Origin: an uncultured Bacteriovorax sp.
GTDB taxonomy: Bacteria; Bdellovibrionota; Bacteriovoracia; Bacteriovoracales; Bacteriovoracaceae
Direction: 5' to 3'
NCBI GenBank assembly: GCA_946482295.1
Contig: CAMLRB010000073.1
Span: 1 to 15,580 of the forward strand
DNA length: 15,580 nucleotides
The notes beneath the pieces are model-generated. The model saw only the letters and a program-made list of their open reading frames with translations, was not told the origin of the DNA and searched no databases. Made by a program: the position numbers and the translations under genes. Below are positions 576 to 12,127 of this stretch, piece after piece. Each line of letters begins with the position of its first letter. Position 1 is the first letter of the stretch.

Positions 576-591
576 TGCAGAATCGATGCCG
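576..591 (-). promoter_or_regulatory. Candidate sigma-54 (-24/-12) promoter for 201-500
   Basis: On the minus strand the site reads CGGCATCGATTCTGCA. GG and GC are separated by ten bases as sigma-54 requires. It differs from the consensus TGGCAC-N5-TTGCW at three positions, none of them in the GG or GC. It points at the gene starting at 500, giving a leader of about 65 bases. This is one of the weaker matches of the series in this window. Confidence 0.5.
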
Positions 592-735
592 TCCTTTCAA
601 CACATTCCTCTGTGATGTTTTAGCTAACATAACTCTCTGCTGTGGTTGCAATATTCCCCAATTTTTTTAGAGACACGAATTGATTCAAGACATTAAGAAG
701 TTATTTTTAATCTGTTTTAGTCAGTCGGACTTCAC

Positions 736-751
736 TGGCACAACTTTTGGA
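736..751 (+). promoter_or_regulatory. Candidate sigma-54 promoter for 799-1296 (imperfect -12)
   Basis: The site reads TGGCACAACTTTTGGA. The -24 half TGGCAC is perfect and the spacing is right, but the -12 half has TTGG instead of TTGC, a change at a highly conserved base. It lies 48 bp before the start codon, divergent from the candidate at 576-591. Its position fits the pattern of the other genes here. On its own it would be marginal. Confidence 0.5.
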
Positions 752-798
752 ATAAGCCGATTTTAGGTAATGAAGAAGTCTTTTTTTAAGGAGGAAAA

Positions 799-1296
799 AT
801 GAACACACAAATTGCCAAAGGTGCAATGAATGAACTTAAAGGTGAACTCAAACAAACCTGGGCGAAACTCACGGATGATGACATCAATTATCTCGATGGA
901 AATGTTGATGAAATAATCGGTAAAGTTCAACGCGCTTATGGTTTTACTCGAGAGCGTGCACAAGAAGAATTTAATCGTTTTAAAAAATCACATGCAAATT
1001 ATTTTCGCGATGAACGCGAGATGAATACCAAGGAGTCAAAGATGGCAACTTCATTTAATAGTTCGGTAAATTCACCTTCAATGAGCAATATTAAAAACCG
1101 TACTTCTCAATTTGTTTCAGACATTAGCGATAGTGAATACATGGAACCAAGCGAGTACATGAATAAGGTAAGAGAATACGGATCAGTTGCGATGGAAAAG
1201 AGCACTGAGTTTGTAAAAAGATATCCGGGTTATACAATCCTGGGGGCAGCTGGAGTTGGTTTTCTTTTAGGAGCATGGCTTTCAAGAAGAAACTAA
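799..1296 (+). CDS. CsbD-like domain fused to a DUF883/ElaB/YqjD-type membrane-anchored C-terminus
   Basis: A 165-residue protein with two recognisable parts. Residues about 7-63 (MNELKGELKQTWAKLTDDD and the following YLDGNVDEIIGKVQRAYG) match the CsbD-like small stress-protein fold. After a Ser/Asn-rich linker (about 80-118) and a short helix, the end at 143-165 (YPGYTILGAAGVGFLLGAWL, then Ser and RR) is the Gly-rich hydrophobic tail typical of the DUF883 ElaB/YqjD proteins, which anchor in the inner membrane. The strong site TAAGGAGG lies five bases before the ATG. The next gene resembles YqjE, echoing the enterobacterial yqjD-yqjE order. CsbD proteins are stress-induced but their biochemical role is unknown; a membrane-tethered CsbD is an unusual architecture. 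Confidence 0.85.
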   Translation: MNTQIAKGAMNELKGELKQTWAKLTDDDINYLDGNVDEIIGKVQRAYGFTRERAQEEFNRFKKSHANYFRDEREMNTKESKMATSFNSSVNSPSMSNIKNRTSQFVSDISDSEYMEPSEYMNKVREYGSVAMEKSTEFVKRYPGYTILGAAGVGFLLGAWLSRRN

Positions 1297-1323
1297 GACC
1301 ATAATTAGAGAAGTTATTATACT

Positions 1324-1347
1324 TGGGCCTATTGTGTAATAGGCCCA
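1324..1347 (+). terminator. 10-bp perfect hairpin between the YqjD-like and YqjE-like genes
   Basis: TGGGCCTATT pairs perfectly with AATAGGCCCA around a GTGT loop. The following tract (GCTTTGTTT) has few uridines, so this is a weak intrinsic terminator at best. It ends only ten bases before the GGAGG ribosome site of the next gene. An attenuator or an mRNA-stabilising/processing hairpin that sets the ratio of the two proteins is equally possible. Confidence 0.55.
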
Positions 1348-1365
1348 GCTTTGTTTGGAGGTCCG

Positions 1366-1884
1366 ATGAAATGGCTATTGATAATCTTCTCTCTTTTATT
1401 TAGACCGTTTTCACGATCATCTTCTGGTGAGCATACAAGTCTTGCTGCCGAGATGAAGCAATTTTTCGTTGATAACGGAAAAAAGGTTCTGCTCGCAATG
1501 ACACTTTCCTCTCTTGTTTCTTCAATTTTTGTCGCTGGTCTTGTTATCTCGATTATCACATTGAGTGCGCAGTATGATCAAAGTGGAAGCTTTGGGTTAT
1601 CGGCCATGATTCTTGGTGGATTAGGAATGATGGCCCTTTCTCTGCTGATTGGTTGGATTGCATTCTCACCTGGTCGTGAATCACGTGCAGAAGCTAGAGA
1701 AAATGAAATGCAATCACGTCATACTAGTGGAAATAACATCAGTGATGCTCTTGTTTTACTCATTCAAGATTTTGTTAAGGAAAGAGAGTTCAATCGATTA
1801 AAACAAAATAGCATGACTCCTGAAGAGGCCTATTTGGGTGGTAATCGTGCACCGACAGAAGAAGAAAGACTGACTCGACAATAA
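1366..1884 (+). CDS. YqjE-like / phage-holin-superfamily inner membrane protein
   Basis: A 172-residue protein. The ATG is chosen because GGAGG lies five bases upstream; the in-frame TTG at 1351 would place the ribosome site inside the gene. A hydrophobic N-terminus (3-12) and an amphipathic region (about 24-40) precede two transmembrane segments at about 41-66 and 78-101. A charged cytoplasmic tail follows, ending in PTEEERLTRQ. The amphipathic stretch plus a two-helix hairpin matches the YqjE/DUF1469 holin-superfamily-III layout. It follows the CsbD/YqjD-like gene by 69 bp and probably shares its transcript through the hairpin at 1324-1347. The family assignment rests on topology and gene order, not on a catalytic motif. 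Confidence 0.65.
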   Translation: MKWLLIIFSLLFRPFSRSSSGEHTSLAAEMKQFFVDNGKKVLLAMTLSSLVSSIFVAGLVISIITLSAQYDQSGSFGLSAMILGGLGMMALSLLIGWIAFSPGRESRAEARENEMQSRHTSGNNISDALVLLIQDFVKEREFNRLKQNSMTPEEAYLGGNRAPTEEERLTRQ

Positions 1885-1918
1885 AAAAATGCAACCCTAG
1901 GGTTGCATTTTATTTTTT
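1885..1918. terminator. Bidirectional intrinsic terminator
   Basis: ATGCAACC and GGTTGCAT pair around a CTAG centre. The stem is flanked by an A-run on the left and a T-rich run on the right. It lies between the convergent genes ending at 1884 and 1927 and can terminate both. Confidence 0.85.
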
Positions 1919-1926
1919 ATAATATT

Positions 1927-2199
1927 CTAAATTTTAATGAGTCGCGATTTAAGCATCTCGCGTTTTAAAATGGCCTGAGTCTCAAGCCACCCCTTGACCA
2001 GATCGTACCCCTTAGTCACATTGAGCATAAGTTTATAATAATCTTTTTGAATAACTTTAAATTGTCTTTTAATGGCATCTTCTCGTCCCTCAAGAGAAGT
2101 CTCTGGCGCATGTTCTTCACTCACATGTGGATGTGCAACTGTATGAAGTAATTTTTTTTGTCGCGCATTTTTTTTTGGTATTGTCTTTTTAATTGGCAT
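1927..2199 (-). CDS. Small basic protein, unknown function
   Basis: A 90-residue protein with no signal peptide or membrane segment. The first 16 residues are Lys/Arg-rich (KKTIPKKNARQKK) and are followed by a His-rich stretch (HTVAHPHVSEEHAPE). The rest is probably helical, with paired aromatics in IQKDYYKLML and KGYDLVKGWLETQ. The basic N-terminus could bind nucleic acid or membrane lipid, but no known family is recognised. The start is firm: GGAGGAG lies about five bases upstream. A sigma-54-like element 43 bp upstream (2242-2257) places it in the same putative regulon as its divergent neighbour, the CsbD-like gene at 2458. Confidence 0.7.
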   Translation of the reverse strand: MPIKKTIPKKNARQKKLLHTVAHPHVSEEHAPETSLEGREDAIKRQFKVIQKDYYKLMLNVTKGYDLVKGWLETQAILKREMLKSRLIKI

Positions 2200-2241
2200 A
2201 ACACTCCTCCTTCGCCCATGCTATTTTTCCCTCTTCATTAG

Positions 2242-2257
2242 AGCAAAACCCATGCCC
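2242..2257 (-). promoter_or_regulatory. Candidate sigma-54 promoter for 1927-2199
   Basis: On the minus strand the site reads GGGCATGGGTTTTGCT. The -12 half TTGCT is perfect, GG-N10-GC spacing is exact, and two -24 half positions deviate (first base, and C to T). It is 43 bp from the start codon and divergent from the element at 2387-2402. Confidence 0.65.
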
Positions 2258-2296
2258 AAGCAACTTATTCAATTATAATCAGAGCTTTCACAAATC

Positions 2297-2308
2297 AGAC
2301 AAATGTCT
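2297..2308. promoter_or_regulatory. Dyad AGACA-AA-TGTCT between two divergent sigma-54-like promoters
   Basis: AGACAAATGTCT is an inverted repeat with 5-base arms. It lies 40 bp upstream of the minus promoter (2242-2257) and 79 bp upstream of the plus promoter (2387-2402), where an enhancer-binding activator could act on both. A related GAC-AAAA-GTC occurs at 8183-8192 between the other divergent pair. Candidate upstream activator site only. Confidence 0.3.
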
Positions 2309-2386
2309 ACAGTCATTCGAGGTAATTCGCCCACTAATGCAGAAGCTCATCCCCTACAAGTTGTTAAAAAATTTTGAAGACCCTAT

Positions 2387-2402
2387 TGGCATATCTACTG
2401 CA
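2387..2402 (+). promoter_or_regulatory. Candidate sigma-54 promoter for the CsbD-like gene at 2458
   Basis: TGGCATATCTACTGCA has exact GG-N10-GC spacing and only two deviations from the consensus (C to T in the -24 half, T to C in the -12 half). The predicted transcription start is near 2413, leaving a leader of about 45 bases. Confidence 0.7.
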
Positions 2403-2457
2403 ATTCATCTTCGCGTGTAGCGTGTAGATGTCATGTTAAAACAAGGAAAAGGGAACA

Positions 2458-3063
2458 ATGCTAAATTGGCCGAAAGTGAAATCACAAGTTTTAAAGAAGT
2501 GGAATAAGCTTCATGATTCCGATGTTGAACAAACAAAGGGTAATCGTGAGCAACTAAAAAAACTTGTGCACGATCACTATAAGGACACATCACGCTTTGA
2601 TGCTGAATACAAGGCCATTTGTGAAAACTGTTCACAACCTTCAGCTGAATCAACTGCAACGAAACCTTATCGATCACCTAACATGACGGATGGCTGGAAA
2701 AAAGGATCTGGTATGGATGTTGGTTCACAATCTGGATCAAATACCGTGACAGAAGGTTCAGACAATCCGGGAACTGATTCAACTTGGGGCTACAATGGTG
2801 TGGACACAAATTCAGAATCAAGTGACATTCATCCAGGTGGCCAAGTGAATACAAAAGAATTTATGCAATCAAATGAACCCATTATATCTGACCGTTCCTA
2901 TAGTGAAGCTCCCGATGAATTCAGTCCTATTCAAAATCCACGCAGTCATGCATCGGATATCCCCTTAGGAGGAGGCCTGTCTTCCTCTGCAAAAAATTCT
3001 TCAGCACATAATGCTGTCTTCAATTCATTCGAGGATCATTCTAGGAGCACTAAGAAGCTGTAA
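2458..3063 (+). CDS. CsbD-like protein with long low-complexity hydrophilic tail
   Basis: A 201-residue protein. Residues about 4-50 (WPKVKSQVLKKWNKLHDSD, then EQTKGNREQLKKLVHDHY) match the CsbD-like domain: the W..LK..V..KW.KL.D.D pattern followed by a G.R..L helix. From about residue 60 the sequence is a polar Ser/Asn/Gly/Asp/Pro-rich tail of about 140 residues, with no hydrophobic segment and a basic end (RSTKKL). This looks intrinsically disordered, as in desiccation or stress-protection proteins, but that is inference. There are two cysteines, CENC at 55-58. The ribosome site AAGGGA lies a few bases before the ATG. It has its own sigma-54-like promoter and a strong terminator, so it is monocistronic. 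Confidence 0.8.
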   Translation: MLNWPKVKSQVLKKWNKLHDSDVEQTKGNREQLKKLVHDHYKDTSRFDAEYKAICENCSQPSAESTATKPYRSPNMTDGWKKGSGMDVGSQSGSNTVTEGSDNPGTDSTWGYNGVDTNSESSDIHPGGQVNTKEFMQSNEPIISDRSYSEAPDEFSPIQNPRSHASDIPLGGGLSSSAKNSSAHNAVFNSFEDHSRSTKKL

Positions 3064-3093
3064 GTTTCCTCGACGAAATTCACAGTCTTGTTG

Positions 3094-3126
3094 AAGCACC
3101 ACCCTAGCGGTGGTGCTTTAATTTTT
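3094..3126 (+). terminator. Intrinsic terminator of 2458-3063
   Basis: AAGCACCACC pairs with GGTGGTGCTT around a five-base loop, followed by TTAATTTTT. It lies 30 bp after the stop codon. Confidence 0.9.
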
Positions 3127-3183
3127 GGGGTAAAATTCCAATCTTGTTTAAGTAGATATTAAGCTCTTGCTGGTTAATGTCAC

Positions 3184-3199
3184 TGGCCCGAGCTTTGCT
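3184..3199 (+). promoter_or_regulatory. Candidate sigma-54 promoter for the hemerythrin-like gene
   Basis: TGGCCCGAGCTTTGCT has a perfect TTGCT -12 half, exact GG-N10-GC spacing and one deviation in the -24 half. It lies 34 bp before the ATG at 3233. It is inside the longer open frame that begins with TTG at 3167, so that upstream start cannot be used from this promoter. Confidence 0.75.
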
Positions 3200-3232
3200 C
3201 TTTTAAAGAGTAAAGTATGGCCGGAGGTTAAA

Positions 3233-3829
3233 ATGACAGGCACACCTATAGTAGACGATAAATTTAACATCGTTGACATTCTTTTGATGGATCATCGTTA
3301 CCTCAAAAAATGTATTGAAGTGTTAAAAGATGAAGATGAAAGTGAAGACGAAAAACTTTTTTTTGGAAAAAGCTTTTTGGATACTTTAAAGAAACATTCA
3401 CTCGCTGAAAAACAATCTGTATATAGTCCTCTTTTGGAAATGAAAGATATACATTCAATCATTTTAGAATGTCAGATTGAGCATGGTATTGTGGATGCAA
3501 AAGTCGAATGGTTAATTCCTAAATTAAATTCTGAAAATAAAATTTCGGATGAGACAGAAGCCGAGCTTAAAGTGCTCGCTGAATTGGTCGAACATCATTT
3601 AAAAGAAGAAGAACATGAGATGATCCCGAAGATCGAAAAAAACTTGGACAGTGAGATTCTGAATGAAATTGGATTTCAATTTTTTAAATTAAGAGGATTT
3701 ACTACCAAAGATCTCGAGGACTATCCAGATCTCCAGGAAGAGGTCACAAAATGGAGTCATGGCCACGAGGCCGTCTCAAGTCAGTATTTGAATAAAGTTC
3801 ACCAATATGTAAATGAGATGACTCATTAG
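3233..3829 (+). CDS. Hemerythrin-like HHE-domain protein
   Basis: A 198-residue soluble protein. The ATG is preferred over the in-frame TTG at 3167 because GGAGG lies six bases upstream and the sigma-54-like promoter at 3184-3199 lies between the two. The sequence reads as a four-helix bundle with spaced metal ligands typical of HHE/hemerythrin-like proteins: H21 in LMDHRYL, H55 and E59 in KKHSLAEKQ, H84 in CQIEHG, and H121/H122, E126 and H128 in VEHHLKEEEHEMIPKI. Such proteins bind a non-haem di-iron centre and act in O2, NO or oxidative-stress handling; which of these applies cannot be told. A strong terminator follows. The DUF748-like gene lies 59 bp downstream and may be reached by read-through. 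Confidence 0.82.
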   Translation: MTGTPIVDDKFNIVDILLMDHRYLKKCIEVLKDEDESEDEKLFFGKSFLDTLKKHSLAEKQSVYSPLLEMKDIHSIILECQIEHGIVDAKVEWLIPKLNSENKISDETEAELKVLAELVEHHLKEEEHEMIPKIEKNLDSEILNEIGFQFFKLRGFTTKDLEDYPDLQEEVTKWSHGHEAVSSQYLNKVHQYVNEMTH

Positions 3830-3845
3830 TATGATGGGTCCCATG

Positions 3846-3875
3846 AGCGGCTGCGTTTTTCGCGGCCGCTTTTTT
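3846..3875 (+). terminator. Intrinsic terminator after the hemerythrin-like gene
   Basis: A 10-bp stem (AGCGGCTGCG with CGCGGCCGCT, one G-T wobble) around a TTTTT loop is followed by a five-T run. It ends 13 bases before the next start codon and just before that gene's ribosome site. No separate promoter is visible for the downstream gene, so termination may be partial. Confidence 0.85.
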
Positions 3876-3888
3876 GTTCGAGGTCATC

Positions 3889-4992
3889 ATGCAAATAAAA
3901 GGTCGTAAAATTAAAAATAAATATATCGTTCTTCTCAGTATATTTGCACTTTTTTTGATTGGCCGAGCAACTCTTCCGTCCTACCTCTTGAAAAAAACTA
4001 ATGAATACCTCGGAAGCTTTTCACCTACGTATGCCATTCATTTAGATGATATGGATTTGAGTTTTCTTCGTGGGGCCTATGAATTTGAAGGCGTAAAAGG
4101 AACGTTAAAAGATAAATCGAAAAAAGAGTTTCTGAGCATCAAAGAAGTAGACGTCTCAATTGCATGGAGAGAAATACTTAAGGGACAAATCGTCACTGAC
4201 ATTATCGTTGATGATATCGATTTCGTTATCATCAAAGATATTAACAAACTTTCAACATCTAAAGAATCCCGCAACAAAACAAAAGATTATCTTTTTCCAT
4301 TAAAGATAGAAAAAGTTGAACTACGTCGTTCATCCATCACTCTTGATGAATACCAGGCGATTGATGGAAATGGAAAAATGCGCATTTCGAACATCAATGG
4401 GATTATAACTAATTTACGTCCTGAAAATGAGAGACCCCTTTCACGTTTTGATTTAACAGCAAACATACTCGATTCGAGTAAAATTAAAATTGATGGAAGT
4501 CTCAACCAACTCCAGAAACCACTTGCATGGACAGTTAATGGAGAAATGAATAAAGTTGATCTTCGCCAATTTAATCCTCTTTTATTAGCTAAACTTCCTC
4601 TCACATTTACAAAAGGAACAATGGATCTCTATGCTGAGGCCCAATCCAAAAATGGTGTTGTAAGAGGTTATATAAAACCCTTTTTGAATGATCTCGACAT
4701 TGTAAATAATGAAGGAGAAGATTTTAAAGGTTTAAAACATTTTGGAGTAGAGATCTTAACCGCATTAGGAAATGTCATTTTGAGAGATGAATCTAAAAAT
4801 CGAAGCGTGGCCACCAAAATAGATTTTACCTATGATAAAAAATTCGATGTAAACGTGGGTGAAGCTGTAAAGAAGGCGATTAAACATGGAACTGCTGATA
4901 AAGAAGATAAAGAAGAACAAAAAGATATCATTGAACGTGGAGTAGAAGGCCGTTATGGCGAAGTTGGAGGATCAGATGTCGAAGCCGAATAA
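3889..4992 (+). CDS. DUF748 / AsmA-like envelope protein
   Basis: A 367-residue protein. The ATG has GAGG five bases upstream; the in-frame TTG at 3874 lies at the end of the terminator and is rejected. It begins with a basic N-terminus and a single membrane segment at about 11-28, then LPSYLLKKTNEYLG and a long beta-rich periplasmic region with repeated amphipathic strands (DDMDLSFLRGAYEFEGVKG, and IVTDIIVDDIDFVIIKD). This is the start of the DUF748/AsmA-like group, relatives of which form beta-groove lipid-transport or outer-membrane-biogenesis proteins. It is short for the family, and the C-terminus (about 330-367) is very charged. It overlaps the lipoprotein gene at 4976 by 17 bp, so the two are translationally linked. 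Confidence 0.72.
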   Translation: MQIKGRKIKNKYIVLLSIFALFLIGRATLPSYLLKKTNEYLGSFSPTYAIHLDDMDLSFLRGAYEFEGVKGTLKDKSKKEFLSIKEVDVSIAWREILKGQIVTDIIVDDIDFVIIKDINKLSTSKESRNKTKDYLFPLKIEKVELRRSSITLDEYQAIDGNGKMRISNINGIITNLRPENERPLSRFDLTANILDSSKIKIDGSLNQLQKPLAWTVNGEMNKVDLRQFNPLLLAKLPLTFTKGTMDLYAEAQSKNGVVRGYIKPFLNDLDIVNNEGEDFKGLKHFGVEILTALGNVILRDESKNRSVATKIDFTYDKKFDVNVGEAVKKAIKHGTADKEDKEEQKDIIERGVEGRYGEVGGSDVEAE

Positions 4993-5113
4993 CTCTCTCA
5001 CTCTCTTGTTAACATTATTAGGTGTCATTGCTCTTTATGCATGTTCACCTGATTCACCGAGCAAACCTGGTCCCGGACCAAAACCACCGATCGTCACGGA
5101 AGGAAAGAACTAA
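4976..5113 (+). CDS. Small lipoprotein with Pro-rich tail
   Basis: A 45-residue protein. It starts inside the 3' end of the preceding gene with GGAGG seven bases before the ATG. The N-terminus has a hydrophobic core (LTLLLTLLGVIAL) ending in LYA before C23, an acceptable lipobox. After cleavage the mature peptide would be 23 residues, rich in Pro and Gly (CSPDSPSKPGPGPKPP). Such peptides are common as orphan lipoproteins; no function can be assigned. It is probably made with the DUF748-like protein. Its stop overlaps the end of the convergent kinase gene by four bases, and no terminator separates them. Confidence 0.75.
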   Translation: MSKPNNSLTLLLTLLGVIALYACSPDSPSKPGPGPKPPIVTEGKN

Positions 5114-6609
5114 ATATAACGTTTCACCGTTTTGAGAAGTGTGTTTAAGTCAACTGGCTTCACTAATATATCAGTGTAGAGAGAAGAATCTGTCGATTTT
5201 TTAATATCCTCAGGGGCCGCTGAAATCATCACGACTGGACAACTGTGATTTTTTCGAGTGAGGAACTCATTACCTTTCATTTCTCCCATATGGAAATCAA
5301 GAACAATAAGATCAGGTGGGTAGAAAGTATGTTCGAGATCATTAAGTGCGAGTTCACCACTATCAAAAGCGAGTACGCGATATCCTTCTTTCTCTAGTGC
5401 CCAAGAGAGAACTTCGCGAAGATCGTGATCGTCATCAACGAGATAAACAGTTTTAATAATATCTTTTCGCTGAGAAAATTCGGGTGAGACCTTTTGTTCA
5501 GCCTCGTGAACGGCAGGAATTTTAAAACTAAAAGTCGCGCCTCTTCCTTCTGAGCTATTGGCCTCTATGAAACCACCGTGGGCCTCAACAATGGATTTAC
5601 AAATGAAAAGACCTAGACCATTTCCTGTTCCACCAGTCCAATATTTTTCGAAAATACTTGGAAGATCTTCCGGATGAATTCCAGGACCATTGTCACGGAT
5701 GGCAAAAACAGTCTCTCCCGATTCCTCTTCGCTCAGTTCGATAACAATTTCCCCTTCATGTGGTGTGAACTTCATTGCGTTGGAGAGGATATTGGAGAGA
5801 ACTTGATGGATGCGTTCTTTATCTAAATAAGTGCTCGCCTTTTTTTGAAAAACACTTTTTTTAATGGTGAGATTTTTTTCTTGAATGAGTGGTTTTAAAG
5901 AATCAAGAACATCATTAACAATAATCAATGGATTGTGATGACCTTTTCTAATAGTAAATGTTTCTCCAACGCTCTCTTCATATGGATTATTCTGTTCAAG
6001 AAGATCGGAGACTAAAACTTTCAGTCGATCAACTGTTCTTAGTATTCGCTGTGATTGAGAACGAAGATCCCGCATAACTTCAGGCCCAGGATCTTTTTGT
6101 GAAAGCAGATCTAACAATTGAGCATCTAACTGAATGGCCGCTAGTGGATTTTTAATATCATGATAAACAATAGCAAGCATTTCTTCTTTGGCCGCCATGG
6201 CCCTTTTGGCTATCGTTCTAGAGCGAGCCTCTTGTTCGTGAACAGCGAGTTCGCGAAGAGAACGCTTAACGACTGGCCCTAATCTTTCAAGGCGCGATTT
6301 ACTTACGAAATCTTGAACGCCGGCCTTCATCATTTCGACTACACTTTCTTCTCCAACGACACCAGCAACAACAATAAAAGGAAGATACTTGGACGTTTCT
6401 CGGACAAGCTGCAGGGCCTCTAGTGGACAAAAAGAAGCGAGGTCGTAATCTGTAATGACAACATTCCACTTCTCATCTTTTAGTGCAGTCTCTAGTTCTG
6501 CTTGTGTTGTAATTCGACGGGCAGAAACATCTCGAACACCACCTTTTTTAAGGTAGTGCAACAGGAGTTGATGATCTGATTCAGAGTCCTCTAAGTTTAA
6601 GAGCTTCAT
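5110..6609 (-). CDS. Hybrid histidine kinase, REC-HisKA-HATPase-REC
   Basis: A 499-residue soluble protein. The N-terminal receiver (1-120) carries acidic residues E7/D8, a likely phospho-acceptor D54 (VVITDYDL) and K104. The usual Ser/Thr of strand 4 is Ala82 (FIVVAG), so switching may be altered. The HisKA helix has H150 in YHDIKNPL. The ATPase domain shows the N box NILSNAMKF (273-281), DNGPGI (307-311) and GTGNGLGL (327-334). The C-terminal receiver (about 386-499) is canonical: DDD 392-394, D438, S463, K484. It starts 18 bp after the membrane kinase gene in the same operon and has no good ribosome site of its own, so translation may be coupled. The C-terminal receiver probably passes phosphate to the HPt protein at 8501-8776. 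Confidence 0.92.
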   Translation of the reverse strand: MKLLNLEDSESDHQLLLHYLKKGGVRDVSARRITTQAELETALKDEKWNVVITDYDLASFCPLEALQLVRETSKYLPFIVVAGVVGEESVVEMMKAGVQDFVSKSRLERLGPVVKRSLRELAVHEQEARSRTIAKRAMAAKEEMLAIVYHDIKNPLAAIQLDAQLLDLLSQKDPGPEVMRDLRSQSQRILRTVDRLKVLVSDLLEQNNPYEESVGETFTIRKGHHNPLIIVNDVLDSLKPLIQEKNLTIKKSVFQKKASTYLDKERIHQVLSNILSNAMKFTPHEGEIVIELSEEESGETVFAIRDNGPGIHPEDLPSIFEKYWTGGTGNGLGLFICKSIVEAHGGFIEANSSEGRGATFSFKIPAVHEAEQKVSPEFSQRKDIIKTVYLVDDDHDLREVLSWALEKEGYRVLAFDSGELALNDLEHTFYPPDLIVLDFHMGEMKGNEFLTRKNHSCPVVMISAAPEDIKKSTDSSLYTDILVKPVDLNTLLKTVKRYI

Positions 6610-6627
6610 TATTACGAATCGAATATC

Positions 6628-8079
6628 CTATTTTACGTCCAAAGTGAAATAAAAAGTTGAGCCTTCACCGACGACAGATTCTGCCCAAATAACTCCCCCA
6701 TGTCGTCGAATTATTCGTGCTGTAGTGGCGAGCCCCATTCCTGTTCCTTCGAACTTATCCTTGGGGTGAAGTCGCTGAAATGGTTGAAATAATTTGTCAT
6801 AAAACCGCATGTCAAAACCTACCCCGTTGTCACGGATGAAGTAGGCCCATTGCCCATCTTTGTGCGTTTTTCCACATTCAATGATCGTGAGATCGCGGGT
6901 GCTTGTATATTTCCATGCATTGTTAATGAGATTTTGAAGTGCAACCCTTAAGAGTCCAGGATCGGCCTGAATCATTTCAGACTCAAAATTCTTAAACTGC
7001 ACTTTGCGATCAGGATTGGGCACTGTGAGTTCTTTGATGAGTTCGTCAGCAACGATGGAAATATCGATTTCTTCTTTTTTAAATTCACTGCGTGTGAGAC
7101 GTGAGAGTTTTATAAGATCATCGATGAGGATTCCCATTTTCTGTACACCTTGCTTAATGAAACTCAAGTAACGTACGGCTTCGTTATCGAGTTTGTTGCC
7201 ATAATCATCGATGAGAATTTGGCTAAAACCATCAATTCCTCTAAGGGGGGCACGCAAATCGTGAGAGATAGAATAATTGACGGCCTCTAACTCCCGGTTC
7301 ACTGTTTGCAATTCGCGTGTTCGTGTATCAATTTGCTCTTCTAATTTATCTGTGGCCTCGGCCAACGAGTTAAAAGCTTCTGAATAATTCTCGGAAAGAC
7401 CTCTTAATTGAAAGAGAGAAAAAGTCGCAAGAAGAATTCCCAATATTAGTCCTAGGATGACAGTTCCTCCTATGACAACTTTTGAAAGATTGTCTGCGCG
7501 CTCTAATCTATCGAGACGGTAGGAATTCTCGGTTTGTTGAAATTGATCAAAGGATTGCCTTATATCGTCCATAAGAGCTTTACTCTCCTCGAAGCTACCG
7601 ACATTAGGGACGGCCTTTCCTTCGCGTTTTGAACGTATTTCTATCGACACTGAGGCACTCCATTTTTGGTAGACTTCCTCAATATGATCTAACAACTCGA
7701 GTTGACCTCGATTATCGGAGTTGAGTTCTTTTAATTCCTTAAGAACGGGGGTGAGCTCTCTTTTTGATTCATACCAAGGATTGAGAAAAGTTTCTTTGCC
7801 AGTAATCATGAATCCACGAAAACCTGATTCTGTATCAATCATTTTTTTTACAGCGAGTGTTGACAACGCAAGCATTTGATCCGAGTTTCTCACTTTTTCG
7901 TTTTGATCAATGAGAAAAGTTATTTGCTGGACGAAAATAATGGAGAGCAAAATCATAAGAGCGATCGGAAGGATCGTTGTTTTAAGAAGAATATTTTTGA
8001 AGAGCAACGGATTAAGATGCTGCTTCTCCCGTTCAGTGGGAACAGGAATCCATTTTTTTGCAAAATCGAACATTGCCAT
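6628..8079 (-). CDS. CHASE3-type membrane sensor histidine kinase
   Basis: A 483-residue protein, counted from the ATG that has AGGGA four bases upstream. The in-frame TTG at 8115 overlaps the -12 part of the promoter and is rejected; an ATG two codons further in (8073) is an alternative. Membrane segments lie at about 33-57 and 201-224. The periplasmic region between them has the CHASE3 signature around IDTESGFRGFMITGKETFL (81-99). A short helical linker follows. HisKA has H273 in SHDLRAPLRG. The HATPase has NLINNAWKYT (383-392), DNGVGF (417-422) and GTGMGL (445-450). There is no receiver domain. The next gene is a REC-HK-REC hybrid 18 bp downstream. Expression from a sigma-54-like promoter suggests positive feedback in the circuit. 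Confidence 0.93.
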   Translation of the reverse strand: MAMFDFAKKWIPVPTEREKQHLNPLLFKNILLKTTILPIALMILLSIIFVQQITFLIDQNEKVRNSDQMLALSTLAVKKMIDTESGFRGFMITGKETFLNPWYESKRELTPVLKELKELNSDNRGQLELLDHIEEVYQKWSASVSIEIRSKREGKAVPNVGSFEESKALMDDIRQSFDQFQQTENSYRLDRLERADNLSKVVIGGTVILGLILGILLATFSLFQLRGLSENYSEAFNSLAEATDKLEEQIDTRTRELQTVNRELEAVNYSISHDLRAPLRGIDGFSQILIDDYGNKLDNEAVRYLSFIKQGVQKMGILIDDLIKLSRLTRSEFKKEEIDISIVADELIKELTVPNPDRKVQFKNFESEMIQADPGLLRVALQNLINNAWKYTSTRDLTIIECGKTHKDGQWAYFIRDNGVGFDMRFYDKLFQPFQRLHPKDKFEGTGMGLATTARIIRRHGGVIWAESVVGEGSTFYFTLDVK

Positions 8080-8101
8080 CCATTCCCTGGTAATGAAGTT
8101 C

Positions 8102-8142
8102 GTCACTATTGCCAAGCAAAAGGTAGGCCAAGGAATAGTGAC
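8102..8142. repeat. Perfect 9-bp inverted repeat flanking the kinase promoter
   Basis: GTCACTATT (8102-8110) and AATAGTGAC (8134-8142) are exact reverse complements. They bracket the sigma-54-like element at 8115-8130 almost symmetrically. A protein bound here could block or organise the promoter. Two more copies of the inner GTGAC/GTCAC unit occur at 8181-8185 and 8204-8208. Confidence 0.7.
8115..8130 (-). promoter_or_regulatory. Candidate sigma-54 promoter for the kinase operon (8079 to 5110)
   Basis: On the minus strand the site reads TGGCCTACCTTTTGCT: TGGC and TTGCT are intact and GG-N10-GC spacing is exact. The predicted start of transcription is near 8104, about 25 bases before the ATG at 8079. 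Confidence 0.75.
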
Positions 8143-8180
8143 TTAGTTGGGGAAATCATGAACAATGACGACACGCGATT

Positions 8181-8208
8181 GTGACAAAAGTCCTCATTGA
8201 AAAGTCAC
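8181..8208. promoter_or_regulatory. Candidate upstream activator site between divergent sigma-54-like promoters
   Basis: GTGAC (8181-8185) and GTCAC (8204-8208) form an inverted pair with 18 bases between them. The left arm also overlaps GAC-AAAA-GTC (8183-8192). The site lies about 50 bp from the minus promoter (8115-8130) and about 40 bp from the plus promoter (8248-8263), as expected for a shared NtrC-type binding site. This is inference only. Confidence 0.35.
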
Positions 8209-8247
8209 CATATAAAACAAATTAAAAACTTATGCTTCTTATCCATT

Positions 8248-8263
8248 TGGTATGCTGCTTGCT
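8248..8263 (+). promoter_or_regulatory. Candidate sigma-54 promoter for the 35-residue ORF
   Basis: TGGTATGCTGCTTGCT has a perfect -12 half TTGCT, exact GG-N10-GC spacing, and two deviations in the -24 half. The predicted start is near 8274, leaving a 30-base leader to the ATG at 8304. Confidence 0.65.
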
Positions 8264-8303
8264 CTAAAGGCCACTGAAGTTCAACAAGTGGAGACAAAAT
8301 CAC

Positions 8304-8411
8304 ATGACAACTAATAGCATCATCACAGCATCTTTAATTTTGGCCATCGCAAATATGAGCATTCAAACAACTGAGTCGTCGGCCGTTAATGAATCTGAAA
8401 CACAAGAATAA
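8304..8411 (+). CDS. Very small (35-residue) hydrophobic/secreted peptide
   Basis: An ATG frame of 35 codons. The product has a hydrophobic helix at about 6-20 (IITASLILAIANMSI) and a polar acidic tail (ESSAVNESETQE). It could be a single-pass inner membrane miniprotein, or a signal-peptide-like precursor cleaved around residue 20-28. GGAG lies ten bases before the ATG, a slightly long spacing. Coding is supported by its position between a sigma-54-like promoter and a strong terminator, which leaves no other product for the transcript. It is divergent from the sensor kinase and would be expressed with it. Function unknown; a small membrane regulator of the kinase is a guess. Confidence 0.6.
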   Translation: MTTNSIITASLILAIANMSIQTTESSAVNESETQE

Positions 8412-8464
8412 AAATTTCCTTTTTAAACTTGAAGTAATTTTTGAGTTTTAAAAGATGACGAAAA

Positions 8465-8490
8465 AAAGGGCGATGTTAAATCGCCCTTTT
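8465..8490. terminator. Bidirectional intrinsic terminator
   Basis: AAAAGGGCGAT pairs with ATCGCCCTTTT around GTTAA, an 11-bp stem with A/T runs on both sides. It serves the 35-residue ORF on the plus strand and the HPt gene on the minus strand. Confidence 0.9.
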
Positions 8491-8500
8491 ATATTTTGTT

Positions 8501-8776
8501 TTAGTGAATTTGTTTTAAGTTTTCTTCTACGTTCGTGCTTAGCTCTTCAATCATGGCCTCTAATTTTTCACGGTCTTTAGTCTTACCCGCTTGTTCCATG
8601 ACAACTCCGATTTTACCAATGGCCGGAAAACCAAATGTTTCCCCATTACCTTTTAAGCGGTGACCGATGTTTACTGCCACATCAAAATCATTTCGCTTCA
8701 AACTCTGGCGGAGTTCTTCAATTTCCGTTTTTCGACGGTTCAAATACATTAATCTCTGCGAAGCTAGTATTTCCAT
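8501..8776 (-). CDS. Stand-alone HPt phosphotransfer protein
   Basis: A 91-residue all-helical protein with the histidine phosphotransfer signature H39-R-L-K-G-N-G-E-T-F-G-F (HxxKGxG followed by FGFP), where H39 is the phosphate carrier. There is no kinase or receiver domain. Its neighbours make it the natural link between the C-terminal receiver of the hybrid kinase (5110-6609) and the receiver of the NtrC-type regulator (9353-10765). The start has a weak purine site (AAAGGG) close upstream. It lies 118 bp downstream of the CsbD-like gene in the same direction with no convincing terminator between them. A TATAAT at 8836-8841 on the minus strand could be its own -10 element. No sigma-54 element was seen directly before it. 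Confidence 0.9.
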   Translation of the reverse strand: MEILASQRLMYLNRRKTEIEELRQSLKRNDFDVAVNIGHRLKGNGETFGFPAIGKIGVVMEQAGKTKDREKLEAMIEELSTNVEENLKQIH

Positions 8777-8894
8777 GGGCCCTTTCTACAATAGTTTCGG
8801 ATAAAATCAAACACAAACTGTTTTAATTTAATCTCATTATACATTGGAGAAATCTTTAAGATACACACCTATATTTTTTACATGTTGTGAACTT

Positions 8895-9254
8895 TTAAAG
8901 TTGTCGTTCACGAGCATTTCTACTTCCGGCATCGACACTGTTTTCACTCGGAAAATCCTCGTTTATCTCTTCATCGAATTCATCATAATCGACGTCTGGA
9001 TTTCTCTCGTGAAACTCTCTATAAACACCATCAAGCTTTTGATCGATTGATTCGCGAGCTTCGCCATACTTTCTTTGAATAAGTCCCGCTATTGATGTCA
9101 ACTTTCCTTTGGTTTCCTCTAGCTCATCATCAGTGAGTTCACCCCAGAGCTTGCGGACCCCTCCTTTAACTTCCTTCCATCGTCCTTTAATGATGTCGTC
9201 ATTCCATGACTTGTTATGAAGTACATCTGGACGAGATTGATCAAAATTTTCCAT
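8895..9254 (-). CDS. CsbD-like stress protein with acidic tail
   Basis: A 119-residue protein. The CsbD-like domain covers about 20-75 (IIKGRWKEVKGGVRKLWGEL, then TDDELEETKGK and a helix ending QRKYGEARESIDQKLD). The tail is acidic (VDYDEFDEEINEDF) and then basic (NARERQL). The ATG at 9254 is preferred because the strong site GGAAGGAG lies six bases before it; the ATG two codons upstream (9260) directly abuts that site. Of the three CsbD-like proteins here this is closest to the classical short form. It has a near-perfect sigma-54 element 43 bp upstream. It follows the sigma-54 activator gene but is separated from it by a terminator. Confidence 0.88.
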   Translation of the reverse strand: MENFDQSRPDVLHNKSWNDDIIKGRWKEVKGGVRKLWGELTDDELEETKGKLTSIAGLIQRKYGEARESIDQKLDGVYREFHERNPDVDYDEFDEEINEDFPSENSVDAGSRNARERQL

Positions 9255-9296
9255 AGTCATCTCCTTCCTTGAAACATTTCTCTTCTCAATTAAAGG

Positions 9297-9312
9297 AGCA
9301 TACGTGGTGCCA
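9297..9312 (-). promoter_or_regulatory. Sigma-54 promoter for the CsbD-like gene at 8895-9254
   Basis: On the minus strand the site reads TGGCACCACGTATGCT. The -24 half is a perfect TGGCAC, GG-N10-GC spacing is exact, and only one -12 half base deviates. It shares 14 of 16 bases with the element at 10903-10918. This is the best match in the window. Confidence 0.85.
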
Positions 9313-9320
9313 ATTTTCCC

Positions 9321-9345
9321 AAAAAAAAAGGGCCTTATCAGGCCC
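9321..9345 (-). terminator. Intrinsic terminator of the sigma-54 activator gene
   Basis: On the minus strand GGGCCT pairs with AGGCCC around GATA and is followed by nine T. It separates the regulator gene from the CsbD-like promoter only nine bases further on. Confidence 0.88.
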
Positions 9346-9352
9346 CTTCACT

Positions 9353-10765
9353 TTATACTACTGATTCAATTTCTTTGAGTTTTCTATAGAGAGTTTTACG
9401 GTCAATACCTAATTCTTTTGCTGTTTGCTCTTTAGCAAAATTGTTTCGTTGAAAAATAAATTCAATGTATTTTTTCGATACATCTTCTAAAGTCATCAAT
9501 GAATTTATAGTAAAGAGGGCCCCGCCATCTCCACTCCCCGTCGAGGTCTGAACATCAGACTTGGAATCGTTTTCCACTTCCAAGGCAGGTAAATCTTCAA
9601 CTTGAATTGTATCGCTCACCGATAAAACGACCGCGCGTTCAATGGCATTTTCAAGTTCACGAACATTTCCTCTCCAAGGAAGAGCTTCCAAACGTTGAAC
9701 AGATGCCTTTGAGAAACCTTTGATGTGAGCATTATTTATGGCAGAGAATTTTTTAAGAAAGTATTCAGAGAGAGGAATAATATCTTCCTTACGCTCTCGG
9801 AGTGGTGGCATATAAATAGGAATAACGTTCAAACGGAAGTACAAGTCTTCACGGAATCTTCCTGCTTCAACTTCTTTCTTTAAATCTTTGTGAGTGGCAC
9901 AGATAATTCTCGCAGTGATATCTCGCGGTTGGTTTTCACCAATACGTTTTACTTTTCTTTCTTGTAAAACTCGCAATAGCTTTGCTTGTAAAGGAAGGGC
10001 CAGGTCACCAATTTCATCCAAAAATAACGTTCCTTTGTTGGCCTCTTCAAAAAGACCAATCTTGCTGCCAACAGCACCTGTAAAGGCCCCTTTAGCATAA
10101 CCGAAAAGTTCAGATTCGAGTAAATTCTCTGGTATGGCCGTGCAGTTGATGGCGATGAAAGGACCATTTTTTCTTTCACCTAATTCGTGAACGGCCTTCG
10201 CTACGACTTCCTTACCAGCTCCGGACTCTCCACAAATGATAATGTTTGCTTGAGAAGAGGCCACGCGTTTTGCGAGCTCCATCGCTTTTTTAAATCCAGG
10301 AGAGCGACCGATGACACCTTTGAGTCCCATCACATCTTCTTCTTTAAAGAGCGATTTTAAATTCGAATTTTCAACCTGTACTTGATTAAGAAAGAGTGCA
10401 CGTTGAACAGAGATGAGGAGTTGAGGAAAGTGTAATGGCTTAAGAACAAAATCGTAAGCACCCGTTTCAATCGCTTCAACCGCCGTCTCAACAGATCCTT
10501 CCGCTGTCATAAGAATGATGGGAAGAACCTGATCGCTAGCGCGAACACGTTTAATGAATTCCATCCCAGACATAACCGGGAGTTTAAGATCTGTGATGAT
10601 AACATCAGCGTGGATCTGTTTTGTTTCAATACTTGTAAGGGCAACTCTCGCATCTTCAAATGGACTGACCGTATAGCCTCTTTGATTGAAGAACGTTGTT
10701 AAGAGTTCGAGTAATTCCGGATCGTCGTCAATTATAACCAGTGAAGGGGAATTTTTTACTTTCAT
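9353..10765 (-). CDS. NtrC-family sigma-54-dependent response regulator (REC-AAA+-Fis HTH)
   Basis: A 470-residue protein. The receiver (1-125) has D13-D15, phospho-acceptor D59 (VIITDLKLP), T87 and K109, all canonical. The central AAA+ domain has Walker A GESGAGKE (179-186), the sigma-54 contact loop GAFTGA (226-231), Walker B TLFLDEIGDL (246-255) and the GNVRELENAIERA segment. The end is a Fis-type helix-turn-helix (TAKELGIDRKTLYRKLKEI). It should activate sigma-54 RNA polymerase from upstream sites when phosphorylated. The many sigma-54-like promoters around it, plus the kinases and HPt protein next door, make it the obvious local activator. It has no sigma-54 element of its own and no clear ribosome site before the ATG, which suggests low constitutive expression. 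Confidence 0.95.
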   Translation of the reverse strand: MKVKNSPSLVIIDDDPELLELLTTFFNQRGYTVSPFEDARVALTSIETKQIHADVIITDLKLPVMSGMEFIKRVRASDQVLPIILMTAEGSVETAVEAIETGAYDFVLKPLHFPQLLISVQRALFLNQVQVENSNLKSLFKEEDVMGLKGVIGRSPGFKKAMELAKRVASSQANIIICGESGAGKEVVAKAVHELGERKNGPFIAINCTAIPENLLESELFGYAKGAFTGAVGSKIGLFEEANKGTLFLDEIGDLALPLQAKLLRVLQERKVKRIGENQPRDITARIICATHKDLKKEVEAGRFREDLYFRLNVIPIYMPPLRERKEDIIPLSEYFLKKFSAINNAHIKGFSKASVQRLEALPWRGNVRELENAIERAVVLSVSDTIQVEDLPALEVENDSKSDVQTSTGSGDGGALFTINSLMTLEDVSKKYIEFIFQRNNFAKEQTAKELGIDRKTLYRKLKEIESVV

Positions 10766-10902
10766 GGGGTTAATTTACTCATTGTGTGTTTTTGGGGTTT
10801 AAGTCTACATTTCTTGCGAAAACGATAGTGGCAGAAATCCCCAAGTCCTGTCAAGCGATGGTGTAATTTAGTGATAACCAACTGAAATTGGAAAAAATTA
10901 CT

Positions 10903-10918
10903 TGGCATCACTTATGCT
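10903..10918 (+). promoter_or_regulatory. Sigma-54 promoter for the DUF1328 gene
   Basis: TGGCATCACTTATGCT has exact GG-N10-GC spacing and two deviations from consensus, both common ones. It lies 59 bp before the ATG at 10978 and is divergent from the regulator gene. It shares the core CA-CAC-TATGCT pattern with the element at 9297-9312. Confidence 0.82.
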
Positions 10919-10977: not shown

Positions 10978-11160
10978 ATGTTACGCGCAGCGATTACATT
11001 TTTTGTTTTGGGTCTAGTGGCAATGCTCTTCGGGGCCTATGGCATTGCGGGGATTTCAATCGAACTTGGAAAAATCCTGCTCATGGTTTTCATCGCCCTT
11101 GCCGTTCTCACATTCTTAGTGGGTATCGCACGTGGGGGATCAAACAAGCAGATTCGTTAG
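10978..11160 (+). CDS. DUF1328 (YtjA-type) small membrane protein
   Basis: A 60-residue protein with two membrane segments, at about 5-24 and 31-51, joined by a short loop (GIAGISIELGK). It has a positively charged end (ARGGSNKQIR). The opening MLRAAITFFVLGLVAMLFGA and the overall size match the DUF1328/UPF0391 family, found in many proteobacteria and often reported with stress genes; its function is not established. AAGGAG lies eight bases before the ATG. It is monocistronic, with a sigma-54-like promoter and a strong terminator. Its pairing with CsbD-like genes under the same promoter type fits a general envelope-stress role. Confidence 0.9.
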   Translation: MLRAAITFFVLGLVAMLFGAYGIAGISIELGKILLMVFIALAVLTFLVGIARGGSNKQIR

Positions 11161-11313: not shown

Positions 11314-11350
11314 AACCCCAGTGCTCATCACTCTGGGGTTTTTTATTTTA
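11314..11350. terminator. Strong terminator, better in the plus direction
   Basis: AACCCCA pairs with TGGGGTT, with an inner GTG/CAC pair, and is followed on the plus strand by TTTTATTTTA. On the minus strand it lies 13 bp after the stop of the solute-binding protein gene, with a weaker T-tract (TTATTA). It may serve both strands. Confidence 0.75.
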
Positions 11351-12100: not shown

Positions 12101-12127
12101 TAAGTTTCTCCGTTGATTGTTTCTTTT

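What the first reader, a model, noticed from the sequence alone, without database searches (positions are those of the whole stretch)
576..10918. A contiguous sigma-54 regulon: nine -24/-12 elements in front of small stress/envelope genes next to their likely activator
GG-N10-GC elements with good halves occur upstream of 201-500, 799, 1927-2199, 2458, 3233, the kinase operon at 8079, the 35-residue ORF, the CsbD-like gene at 9254 and DUF1328 at 10978. All point correctly, on both strands, mostly 30-60 bp from the start codon. An NtrC-type activator with an intact GAFTGA loop sits inside the cluster. I saw none in front of the solute-binding protein, chemoreceptor or SGNH genes. A local sigma-54 island that combines CsbD, hemerythrin, YqjE-like and DUF1328 genes is, to my knowledge, not a standard described system.
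Basis: partly seen in the sequence, partly recalled or inferred. Interest (0 to 1): 0.9.

Follow-up and report, generated by a model that had tools for sequence, protein, structure and literature searches.

The report
Sigma-54 stress-gene regulon in Bacteriovoracaceae
A bacterium from the family of the predator Bacteriovorax appears to switch on a block of stress-type genes with the specialised sigma-54 transcription machinery, through activator sites shared between neighbouring promoters, where well-studied bacteria use a different dedicated stress sigma factor.

Summary
All nine -24/-12 elements are at the stated places. In a matrix scan the window's eight best hits are eight of the nine, all intergenic and correctly oriented: 8 sites of 12.8 bits or more against 0.11 expected, none in 13.3 kb of genes. 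They recur before the same genes in relatives. (1) A palindrome, GGGG-N8-CCCC-like, learned without the window, lies 41-74 bp upstream of eight of the nine elements; five copies serve eight promoters, three copies shared by divergent pairs. It is the likely binding site of the adjacent NtrC-type activator. (2) In a relative a second sigma-54 island precedes GST, CBS, BON, SPW, MscS, DJ-1/PfpI and ClpA/B-type genes. Ten of ten relatives have RpoN; none has RpoS above cut-off. Best reading: a sigma-54 regulon of stress-type genes fed by a CHASE3-kinase/hybrid-kinase/Hpt/NtrC-type phosphorelay. Promoters and upstream motif are well supported; stress function, binding and relay order are inferred. 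Against: promoter 9297-9313 lacks the motif, 735-751 has GG at -12, and a more distant clade keeps several promoters without the motif.

The parts
576..592 (-). -24/-12 element ACGGCATCGATTCTGCA before gene 201-500
   Evidence: 11.0 bits, rank 11; in L021 a site of 14.7 bits lies 31 bp before the homologue; in L008 and G014 the site in this slot stands before a DUF1328 copy followed by this gene
645..660 (.). enhancer-like palindrome shared by promoters 576 and 735
   Evidence: 13.4 bits with a matrix trained without the window; gaps 52 and 74
735..751 (+). -24/-12 element CTGGCACAACTTTTGGA (GG at -13/-12) before the CsbD gene 799-1296
   Evidence: 12.8 bits; the same TTGGA in 7 of 11 scored rows and in G014
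201..500 (-). 99-aa protein, no Pfam family
799..1296 (+). CsbD-domain protein, 165 aa
   Evidence: PF05532 49.5 bits, above cut-off
1366..1884 (+). 172-aa protein, no Pfam family, probably co-transcribed with 799-1296
   Evidence: 0 of 8 scored orthologues has a sigma-54 site of 11 bits or more
1927..2199 (-). 90-aa conserved protein, no Pfam family
2242..2258 (-). -24/-12 element TGGGCATGGGTTTTGCT
   Evidence: 15.3 bits; 6 of 7 scored orthologous promoters have one of 12 bits or more
2319..2334 (.). enhancer-like palindrome shared by promoters 2242 and 2386
   Evidence: 12.4 bits, gaps 60 and 51; one shared copy also in L001, L002, L005 and L021
2386..2402 (+). -24/-12 element TTGGCATATCTACTGCA
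   Evidence: 14.7 bits; 4 of 5 scored orthologous promoters
2458..3063 (+). 201-aa protein with a weakly CsbD-like N-terminus
   Evidence: below cut-off: PF05532 12.5 bits, PRK10428 19.4 bits
3126..3141 (.). enhancer-like palindrome for promoter 3183
   Evidence: 11.7 bits, gap 41
3183..3199 (+). -24/-12 element CTGGCCCGAGCTTTGCT
   Evidence: 18.0 bits, best in the window; 5 of 8 scored orthologous promoters
3233..3829 (+). hemerythrin-domain protein, first gene before DUF748 (3889-4992) and a small lipoprotein-like ORF (4976-5113)
   Evidence: PF01814 37.3 bits; PA2171-family model 53 bits against a cut-off of 190
5110..6609 (-). REC-HisKA-HATPase-REC hybrid kinase
6628..8079 (-). CHASE3 sensor histidine kinase
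   Evidence: PF05227, HisKA, HATPase_c
8115..8131 (-). -24/-12 element TTGGCCTACCTTTTGCT of the kinase operon
   Evidence: 14.0 bits; a site in the corresponding slot in L003 and L004, there before a small ORF
8180..8195 (.). enhancer-like site shared by promoters 8115 and 8247
   Evidence: 9.0 bits, the weakest of the five; gaps 48 and 51
8247..8263 (+). -24/-12 element TTGGTATGCTGCTTGCT
   Evidence: 14.9 bits
8304..8411 (+). 35-aa ORF; an ungapped comparison found no homologue in L001-L021; in L003 and L004 a different small lipoprotein with a divergent sigma-54 site takes the slot
8501..8776 (-). Hpt phosphotransfer protein
   Evidence: PF01627 36.5 bits; 1 of 17 scored orthologues has a sigma-54 site of its own
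8895..9260 (-). CsbD-domain protein, 121 aa
   Evidence: PF05532 52.2 bits
9297..9313 (-). -24/-12 element TTGGCACCACGTATGCT; no upstream motif at the usual distance
   Evidence: 15.6 bits; 6 of 13 scored rows have a site of 12 bits or more, some rows being the other CsbD gene; best motif score at 30-115 bp is -5.6
9353..10765 (-). NtrC-type activator: REC, AAA+ with GAFTGA, HTH_8
   Evidence: PF00072, PF00158, PF02954, GAFTGA; orthologues in 25 of 97 genomes of the order
10828..10843 (.). enhancer-like palindrome GTGGCAGAAATCCCCA for promoter 10902
   Evidence: 14.2 bits, gap 58
10902..10918 (+). -24/-12 element TTGGCATCACTTATGCT
   Evidence: 13.1 bits; 15 of 19 scored orthologous promoters have a site of 12 bits or more, 12 of them at 37-45 bp and 3 at 213-223 bp
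10978..11160 (+). DUF1328 small protein
   Evidence: PF07043 33.4 bits, above cut-off

Best explanation
The island is a sigma-54 regulon of stress/envelope-type genes with its own signalling system. A CHASE3 sensor kinase (and/or the hybrid kinase of the same operon) senses an unknown cue; phosphate passes from the hybrid kinase's REC domains through the Hpt protein to the REC domain of the NtrC-type activator; the activator binds GGGG-N8-CCCC-like palindromes and, through its GAFTGA loop, opens RpoN-polymerase at the -24/-12 elements 41-74 bp away. One palindrome between divergent promoters serves both. Because the kinase operon carries such a promoter and the activator and Hpt genes do not, a positive feedback on signal input is expected. 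Outputs are CsbD proteins, DUF1328, a hemerythrin protein, the kinase operon and small proteins of unknown function; in relatives further genes elsewhere belong to the same or a linked sigma-54 programme. Shown by sequence: promoters, motif, gene order, conservation. Inferred: which protein binds the motif, the relay order, the cue, and that the output is stress protection.
For: Promoters beyond chance. Sites of 12 bits or more before the same genes in the 21 loci: DUF1328 15 of 19, 1927-gene 6 of 7, 2458-gene 4 of 5, hemerythrin 5 of 8; 0 of 19 NtrC genes and 0 of 8 1366-genes; background 3.4% of 1315 ORFs. Upstream motif: matrix from 68 sequences without the window, log-likelihood gain 200.8 against 29-42 in 6 shuffled sets; in the window 5 copies serve 8 of 9 promoters, chance 0.023-0.032 each. 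In 5 of 6 loci without shared sampled 40-mers both elements precede the DUF1328 gene next to the activator. Both elements before DUF1328: 9 of 18 genes in activator-bearing genomes, 0 of 8 in others (Fisher 0.023). CsbD in 9 of 10 activator genomes against 2 of 30 without; DUF1328 12 of 14 against 4 of 30. RpoN in 10 of 10 relatives. CHASE3 HK, REC-HK-REC and Hpt domains.
Against: No transcript data. Promoter 9297-9313 has no motif copy; copies scored there in L003, L004, L008 and L020 lie in stem-loops that look like terminators of the activator gene. 8180-8195 is weak (9.0 bits). In the six independent loci G035 has six sites and no motif copy above 3.1 bits, and the divergent CsbD/1927-type pair of G072, G075, G063 and G068 has sigma-54 sites but motif scores of only -2.0 to 6.3. 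In G004's second island 7 of 28 sites have a copy of 8 bits or more. Shuffling removes the kinship of the orthologous promoters, so part of the motif gain is kinship. The activator-present/absent comparison is probably confounded by kinship; its motif threshold was lowered from 9 to 6 bits (on); with 12 bits for sigma-54 it is not significant (6 of 18 against 0 of 8, p = 0.13), nor is sigma-54 alone (10 of 18 against 1 of 8, p = 0.08). The stress role rests on gene families alone.
Confidence: 0.75

Rival explanations
1. The promoters are sigma-54 promoters, but several activators share them; the NtrC-type gene in the island controls only the promoters with a good palindrome, and the CsbD gene at 8895-9260 and many second-island genes answer to others.
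For: 9297-9313 has no palindrome; 7 of 28 second-island sites have a copy of 8 bits or more; in the distant clade the CsbD/1927 pair lacks it; a string ending TTTGCCTC recurs before several second-island sites.
Against: Inside the window 8 of 9 promoters carry the same motif. Other activators of these genomes were not examined.
Confidence: 0.35
2. The regulon belongs to a life-cycle switch (attack phase, dormancy, prey entry) and not to a stress response.
For: Bacteriovorax are predators; in Bdellovibrio bacteriovorus a FliA-like site is in 92 of 140 attack-phase promoters (PMC3627812, passages). The hemerythrin protein distantly resembles PA2171, which represses translation and division (PMC13041383, abstract).
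Against: Members of the same families are in stress regulons elsewhere (CsbD and DUF1328 proteins under sigma-S in Salmonella, PMC5437024, passages; csbD and mscS under EcfG, PMC7083833, passages).
Confidence: 0.3
3. The regulon answers nitrogen or carbon limitation, as for NtrC or AtoC.
For: The activator is NtrC-type; its best curated models are AtoC and NtrC.
Against: The curated cut-offs are missed by far (AtoC 440.8 of 714; NtrC 402.4 of 558.6); no nitrogen-assimilation family was hit among the window's proteins.
Confidence: 0.08
4. The elements are chance matches in AT-rich intergenic DNA.
For: The bare GG-N10-GC rule gives 13 intergenic matches against a shuffle mean of 7.1.
Against: Matrix counts 8 against 0.11 and recurrence in independent loci.
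Confidence: 0.02

Closest known systems
DVU3303-3305 of Desulfovibrio vulgaris (NtrC-family regulator, 'general stress')
   Same: Sigma-54-dependent two-component regulator acting on its own neighbourhood and on stress-type genes (PMC3333781 and PMC4641369, passages).
   Different: Its targets include UspA-type and membrane genes and a regulator with a Lon protease domain; the words CsbD and hemerythrin do not occur in either main text. The window has no Lon-domain regulator and instead a CHASE3 kinase, a hybrid kinase and an Hpt.
Sigma-S regulon of enterobacteria and EcfG general stress response of alphaproteobacteria
   Same: Overlapping effector families: CsbD (YjbJ) and DUF1328 (YtjA) in Salmonella; csbD and mscS in Sphingopyxis.
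   Different: Different sigma factor and logic: sigma-54 with an ATP-dependent activator and upstream sites instead of sigma-S or EcfG.
ZraSR and Psp envelope-stress systems
   Same: Sigma-54 activators of envelope-stress genes (recalled).
   Different: The activator misses the ZraR (360 of 760) and PspF (248.6 of 443.55) cut-offs; no psp- or zra-type family was hit among the window's proteins.
RpoN-RpoS pathway of Borrelia
   Same: Sigma-54 with an NtrC-type activator at the top of an adaptive programme (PMC4014564, start of abstract in the listing).
   Different: There sigma-54 acts through rpoS; here no RpoS is above cut-off in 10 relatives and the sites lie directly before the stress-type genes.

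Membership tests
NtrC-family sigma-54 activator (response regulator) | REC, sigma-54 AAA+ and Fis-type HTH domains | tested here: met
   PF00072, PF00158 and PF02954 above cut-off
NtrC-family sigma-54 activator (response regulator) | GAFTGA loop | tested here: met
   GYAKGAFTGA in the translation
NtrC-family sigma-54 activator (response regulator) | binding to upstream palindromes | tested here: inconclusive
   a motif was found and recurs, not at every promoter; binding is not testable here
sigma-54-dependent promoter | -24/-12 element at correct spacing, beyond chance and recurring in relatives | tested here: met
   735-751 deviates at -12 and 576-592 is the weakest
sigma-54-dependent promoter | transcription start about 12 nt past -12 and dependence on rpoN | not testable with these tools
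   no RNA data
sigma-S (RpoS) general stress regulon | an rpoS gene | tested here: not met
   TIGR02394 above cut-off in 0 of 10 relatives; the window's own genome is not held
AtoC, NtrC, ZraR, PspF, GlrR regulators | score above the curated NCBIfam cut-off | tested here: not met
   all five below cut-off
PA2171 family ribosome-binding persister protein (for the hemerythrin gene) | score above cut-off | tested here: not met
   53.2 of 190 bits
DVU3305-type general stress system | response-regulator partner with a Lon protease domain | tested here: not met
   no Lon family among the hits of the window's proteins

The most novel reading that the evidence does not exclude
In Bacteriovoracaceae, where no RpoS was found, sigma-54 together with a dedicated phosphorelay-fed activator has taken over the job of the general stress sigma factor: a genome-wide general stress response built on -24/-12 promoters and shared GGGG-N8-CCCC enhancers, with its core island next to the activator and at least one satellite island. 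A side prediction is that the repeatedly kept GG at -13/-12 before the CsbD gene marks a functional variant -12 element.
Probability: 0.4. Interest if true: 0.75.

Novelty: new variant of a known kind. Interest (0 to 1): 0.6.

Why it matters
The controllers of stress survival in Bdellovibrio-like bacteria are poorly known (recalled); one B. bacteriovorus sigma-factor paper names RpoD, FliA, RpoN and RpoE-like factors among others, and the word RpoS does not occur in it (PMC3464611, passages). Here a concrete regulator, a binding motif and a target list are predicted, so the idea is directly testable. If true, effector families used elsewhere under sigma-70-type stress factors (CsbD, DUF1328) are wired here to sigma-54, a mechanistically unrelated control that is tightly off until an ATP-driven activator fires.

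Tried and rejected
The candidate half-site GAC-N4-GTC (8180, 2297), noted by eye, was dropped: motif search did not favour it. Simple 4+4 dyad counting was weak and mostly AT-rich; expectation-maximisation found the G/C palindrome.

The upstream copies before the 8895-9260 CsbD orthologues were rejected as enhancer evidence because they lie in terminator-like stems. The same applies to the top hit of the G004 scan (C24:70002+, 32.9), so I count 7 and not 8 pairs at 26 or more. The other in-locus G004 hits were part of motif training and are not independent. Enrichment of the pairs over the control fades at lower scores (13 against 3 at 24; 22 against 11 at 22; 40 against 23 at 20).

Searches anchored some genes wrongly (strand and start); one search replaces them. 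Between and the motif threshold was lowered from 9 to 6 bits. Of the 14 activator genomes, G054, G061, G067 and G070 appear from contig number and position to be those of training loci L017, L011, L015 and L014, so they are not independent of the motif. A GG-N9-GC string near 11265 is not counted (wrong spacing). Not used: structure prediction, fold search, solved-structure search, the 5.8-billion protein search, search_dna_similar.


Full report
What is there. The window is probably a chromosomal stretch of a Bacteriovoracaceae bacterium: its NtrC-type protein has 59-81% identical counterparts in 21 loci, 18 of whose record titles name Bacteriovorax or Bacteriovoracaceae. Nine -24/-12 elements stand at the places named. 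The eight best matrix hits of the window are eight of them; the ninth (576-592) scores 11.0 bits and ranks 11th. The matrix is approximate and typed from the recalled consensus.

Is it more than chance? In 2320 intergenic bases 8 sites reach 12.8 bits; 2000 dinucleotide shuffles give 0.11 on average, maximum 3; 13,281 coding bases hold none (2 at 11 bits); the reversed intergenic sequence holds none at 11 bits or more. The unweighted rule GG-N10-GC alone would not be significant (13 against 7.1). No site of 11 bits or more precedes the solute-binding or chemoreceptor genes; the SGNH frame runs off the window, so its promoter cannot be judged.

Recurrence in relatives. In the 21 loci, sites of 12 bits or more within 300 bp precede DUF1328 in 15 of 19 scorable cases (12 at 37-45 bp, 3 at 213-223 bp), the 1927-2199 gene in 6 of 7, the 2458-3063 gene in 4 of 5, the hemerythrin gene in 5 of 8, the 8895 CsbD query in 6 of 13 rows (several rows are the other CsbD gene), the 201-500 gene in 2 of 3; against 0 of 19 activator genes, 0 of 8 of the 1366-1884 gene, 0 of 3 DUF748, 0 of 3 hybrid kinases and 1 of 17 Hpt genes. 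Background in one relative (G004): 3.4% of 1315 ORFs of 150 aa or more. For the 799-1296 CsbD query only 3 of 11 rows reach 12 bits, because the element keeps GG in place of GC at -13/-12 in seven of the eleven (L001, L004, L005, L007, L008, L009, L021; 6.1 to 14.5 bits). Of the other four rows, L003 and L013 also align as the other CsbD gene, L018 has GC, and the gene start in L020 is not resolved. G014, not in training, has the GG too.

The enhancer-like motif. Motif search on up to 180 bases upstream of the sites gave a palindrome GGGG.AatatT.CCCC (54 sequences above 0.8 posterior in the 16-column palindromic model, of 78 used). Trained on the 68 sequences outside the window it gains 200.8 log units against 29-42 in six shuffled sets, which had fewer starts and lack the kinship of real orthologues. 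In the window five copies lie 41-74 bp upstream of eight of the nine elements: 645-660 (for 576 and 735), 2319-2334 (for 2242 and 2386), 3126-3141, 8180-8195 (for 8115 and 8247) and 10828-10843; scores 9.0-14.2; a random place reaches 9 bits in 2.3% (window) or 3.2% (shuffle) of cases. In L001, L002, L005 and L021 the copies listed for the divergent 1927- and 2458-type promoters are reverse complements, so one copy is shared. The ninth promoter, 9297-9313, has none; the apparent copies in L003, L004, L008 and L020 lie in terminator-like stems after the activator gene. Chance coding matches exist (14130-14145, 13.9 bits; 2972-2987, 10.3 bits), and a 12.7-bit match overlaps the 9297 element itself.

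Independent checks. Six loci that share no sampled 40-mer with the training loci repeat the arrangement at the DUF1328 gene beside the activator in 5 of 6. Against: G035 has six sites and no motif copy above 3.1 bits, and in G072, G075, G063 and G068 the divergent CsbD/1927-type pair has sigma-54 sites with motif scores from -2.0 to 6.3. The activator has orthologues (E below 1e-188) in 25 of 97 genomes sampled from the order, at most 16 first-look candidates being scored per genome; G010 falls outside because its frame is broken in L021. I took 14 of the 25 and 30 of the 72 others further. DUF1328 occurs in 12 of 14 and in 4 of 30. Sigma-54 of 11 bits or more with motif of 6 or more precedes 9 of 18 DUF1328 genes in the former and 0 of 8 in the latter (Fisher 0.023); at 12 bits 6 of 18 against 0 of 8 (p = 0.13); sigma-54 alone at 11 bits 10 of 18 against 1 of 8 (p = 0.08). 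The best site lies 36-47 bp from the start in 14 of 18 and in 0 of 8. CsbD occurs in 9 of 10 activator genomes and in 2 of 30 without, where 0 of 5 genes has a site. Kinship probably confounds these comparisons, and four of the 14 genomes appear to hold training loci.

Beyond the island. The strict pattern TTGGCAY-N6-TGCW occurs 244 times in 10 relatives against 25 for the reversed pattern, and 44 against 2 in G014. In 1.84 of about 3.8 Mb of G004, pairs of site plus upstream motif with a combined score of 26 or more number 8 against 0 for the motif placed downstream (7 if the terminator-like one is dropped); at 24 it is 13 against 3, at 20 it is 40 against 23. Four of the 8 lie in the orthologous island, which was in training; the others are C23:109871, C23:129564, C34:528275 and C24:266663, two of them without an assigned ORF. 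In C23:100-220 kb, picked after this scan, there are 28 sites of 11.5 bits or more outside long genes, 7 with a motif copy of 8 bits or more; no shuffle control was run there. They precede genes for ClpA/B-type AAA, GST, CBS, SPW, BON, MscS, DJ-1/PfpI, an endonuclease/exonuclease/phosphatase protein and a metallo-beta-lactamase-like protein (below cut-off), and small hydrophilic proteins. Five of these genes have homologues in 17 kb of G014, each with a -24/-12 element upstream; that stretch was chosen for its strict-pattern hits, and two of the five elements are such hits. Motif copies there are mostly weak, so another activator or a looser site is possible.

Mechanism. The activator has REC, AAA+ and HTH_8 domains and GAFTGA. 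The kinase operon encodes a CHASE3 histidine kinase and a REC-HisKA-HATPase-REC hybrid; an Hpt gene lies between kinases and activator. The parts fit a relay from hybrid kinase to Hpt to activator; this order is inferred. The kinase operon has a sigma-54 promoter with a weak motif copy; the activator and, with one exception in 17, the Hpt genes do not, so feedback on signal input is expected.

What it works like, and what it is. It works like a sigma-54 two-component regulon. It is not the AtoC, NtrC, ZraR or PspF regulator by curated cut-offs. RpoN is present in 10 of 10 relatives; the RpoS model matches in all ten but is above cut-off in 0 of 10; two sigma-70-type factors of G004 examined further look like RpoH (subfamily model above, equivalog below cut-off) and FliA/WhiG (above cut-off). 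CsbD and DUF1328 proteins are sigma-S controlled in Salmonella (PMC5437024, passages); csbD and mscS belong to the EcfG response in Sphingopyxis (PMC7083833, passages). The nearest precedent found for sigma-54 control of a stress set is DVU3303-3305 in Desulfovibrio (PMC3333781 and PMC4641369, passages). A 2011 sigma-54 survey linking it to the cell exterior holds neither the word Bdellovibrio nor CsbD (PMC3162934, passages). A 2026 Bdellovibrio/Bacteriovorax comparison mentions NtrC only for PilR/PilS (PMC12827227, passages). Six searches listed no description of this system: 15 of 27 papers listed; 20 of 303; 8 of 8; 15 of 179; 6 of 6; 5 of 5; only open-licence papers are covered.

Verdict. 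The promoters are real in all likelihood, the shared upstream motif makes most of them one regulon, and the adjacent activator is the likely controller. A general-stress role is plausible but unproven.

Noticed in passing
window 11255-11345: After the DUF1328 gene and its terminator-like stem there is a GG-N9-GC string (TGGCAAGAATTTGCCA) followed some tens of bases later by a terminator-like hairpin; a small RNA is conceivable, or the hairpin ends the opposite gene.
   Followed up: no
window 3233-3829: The hemerythrin protein's only curated NCBIfam match is the PA2171 ribosome-binding persister family, far below its cut-off (53 of 190 bits).
   Followed up: partly
L021 10001-11312: The activator gene of this locus is matched in two pieces in different frames, with residues 238-265 unmatched: a broken frame or an assembly error.
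   Followed up: no
L279 11863-12693 and look-alikes in G072, G068, G035: In a more distant clade a gene beside the activator (Methyltransf_32 by Pfam in L279, the one tested) has a sigma-54 site and, in three of four loci, a strong upstream motif (12.5-16.9 bits).
   Followed up: partly
L132 and L323: In the second island a half-site-like string ending in TTGCCTC recurs upstream of several sigma-54 sites, perhaps the site of a second activator or a degenerate form of the palindrome.
   Followed up: no
window 799-1296: The CsbD protein ends in a glycine-rich membrane-anchor-like tail (GYTILGAAGVGFLLGAWLSRRN) that recalls YqjD/ElaB proteins; resemblance from memory, no Pfam match.
   Followed up: no
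window 11363-12952: Two divergently transcribed solute-binding protein genes (SBP_bac_3 and NMT1-like) lie beside a chemoreceptor gene, without sigma-54 sites of 11 bits or more.
   Followed up: no
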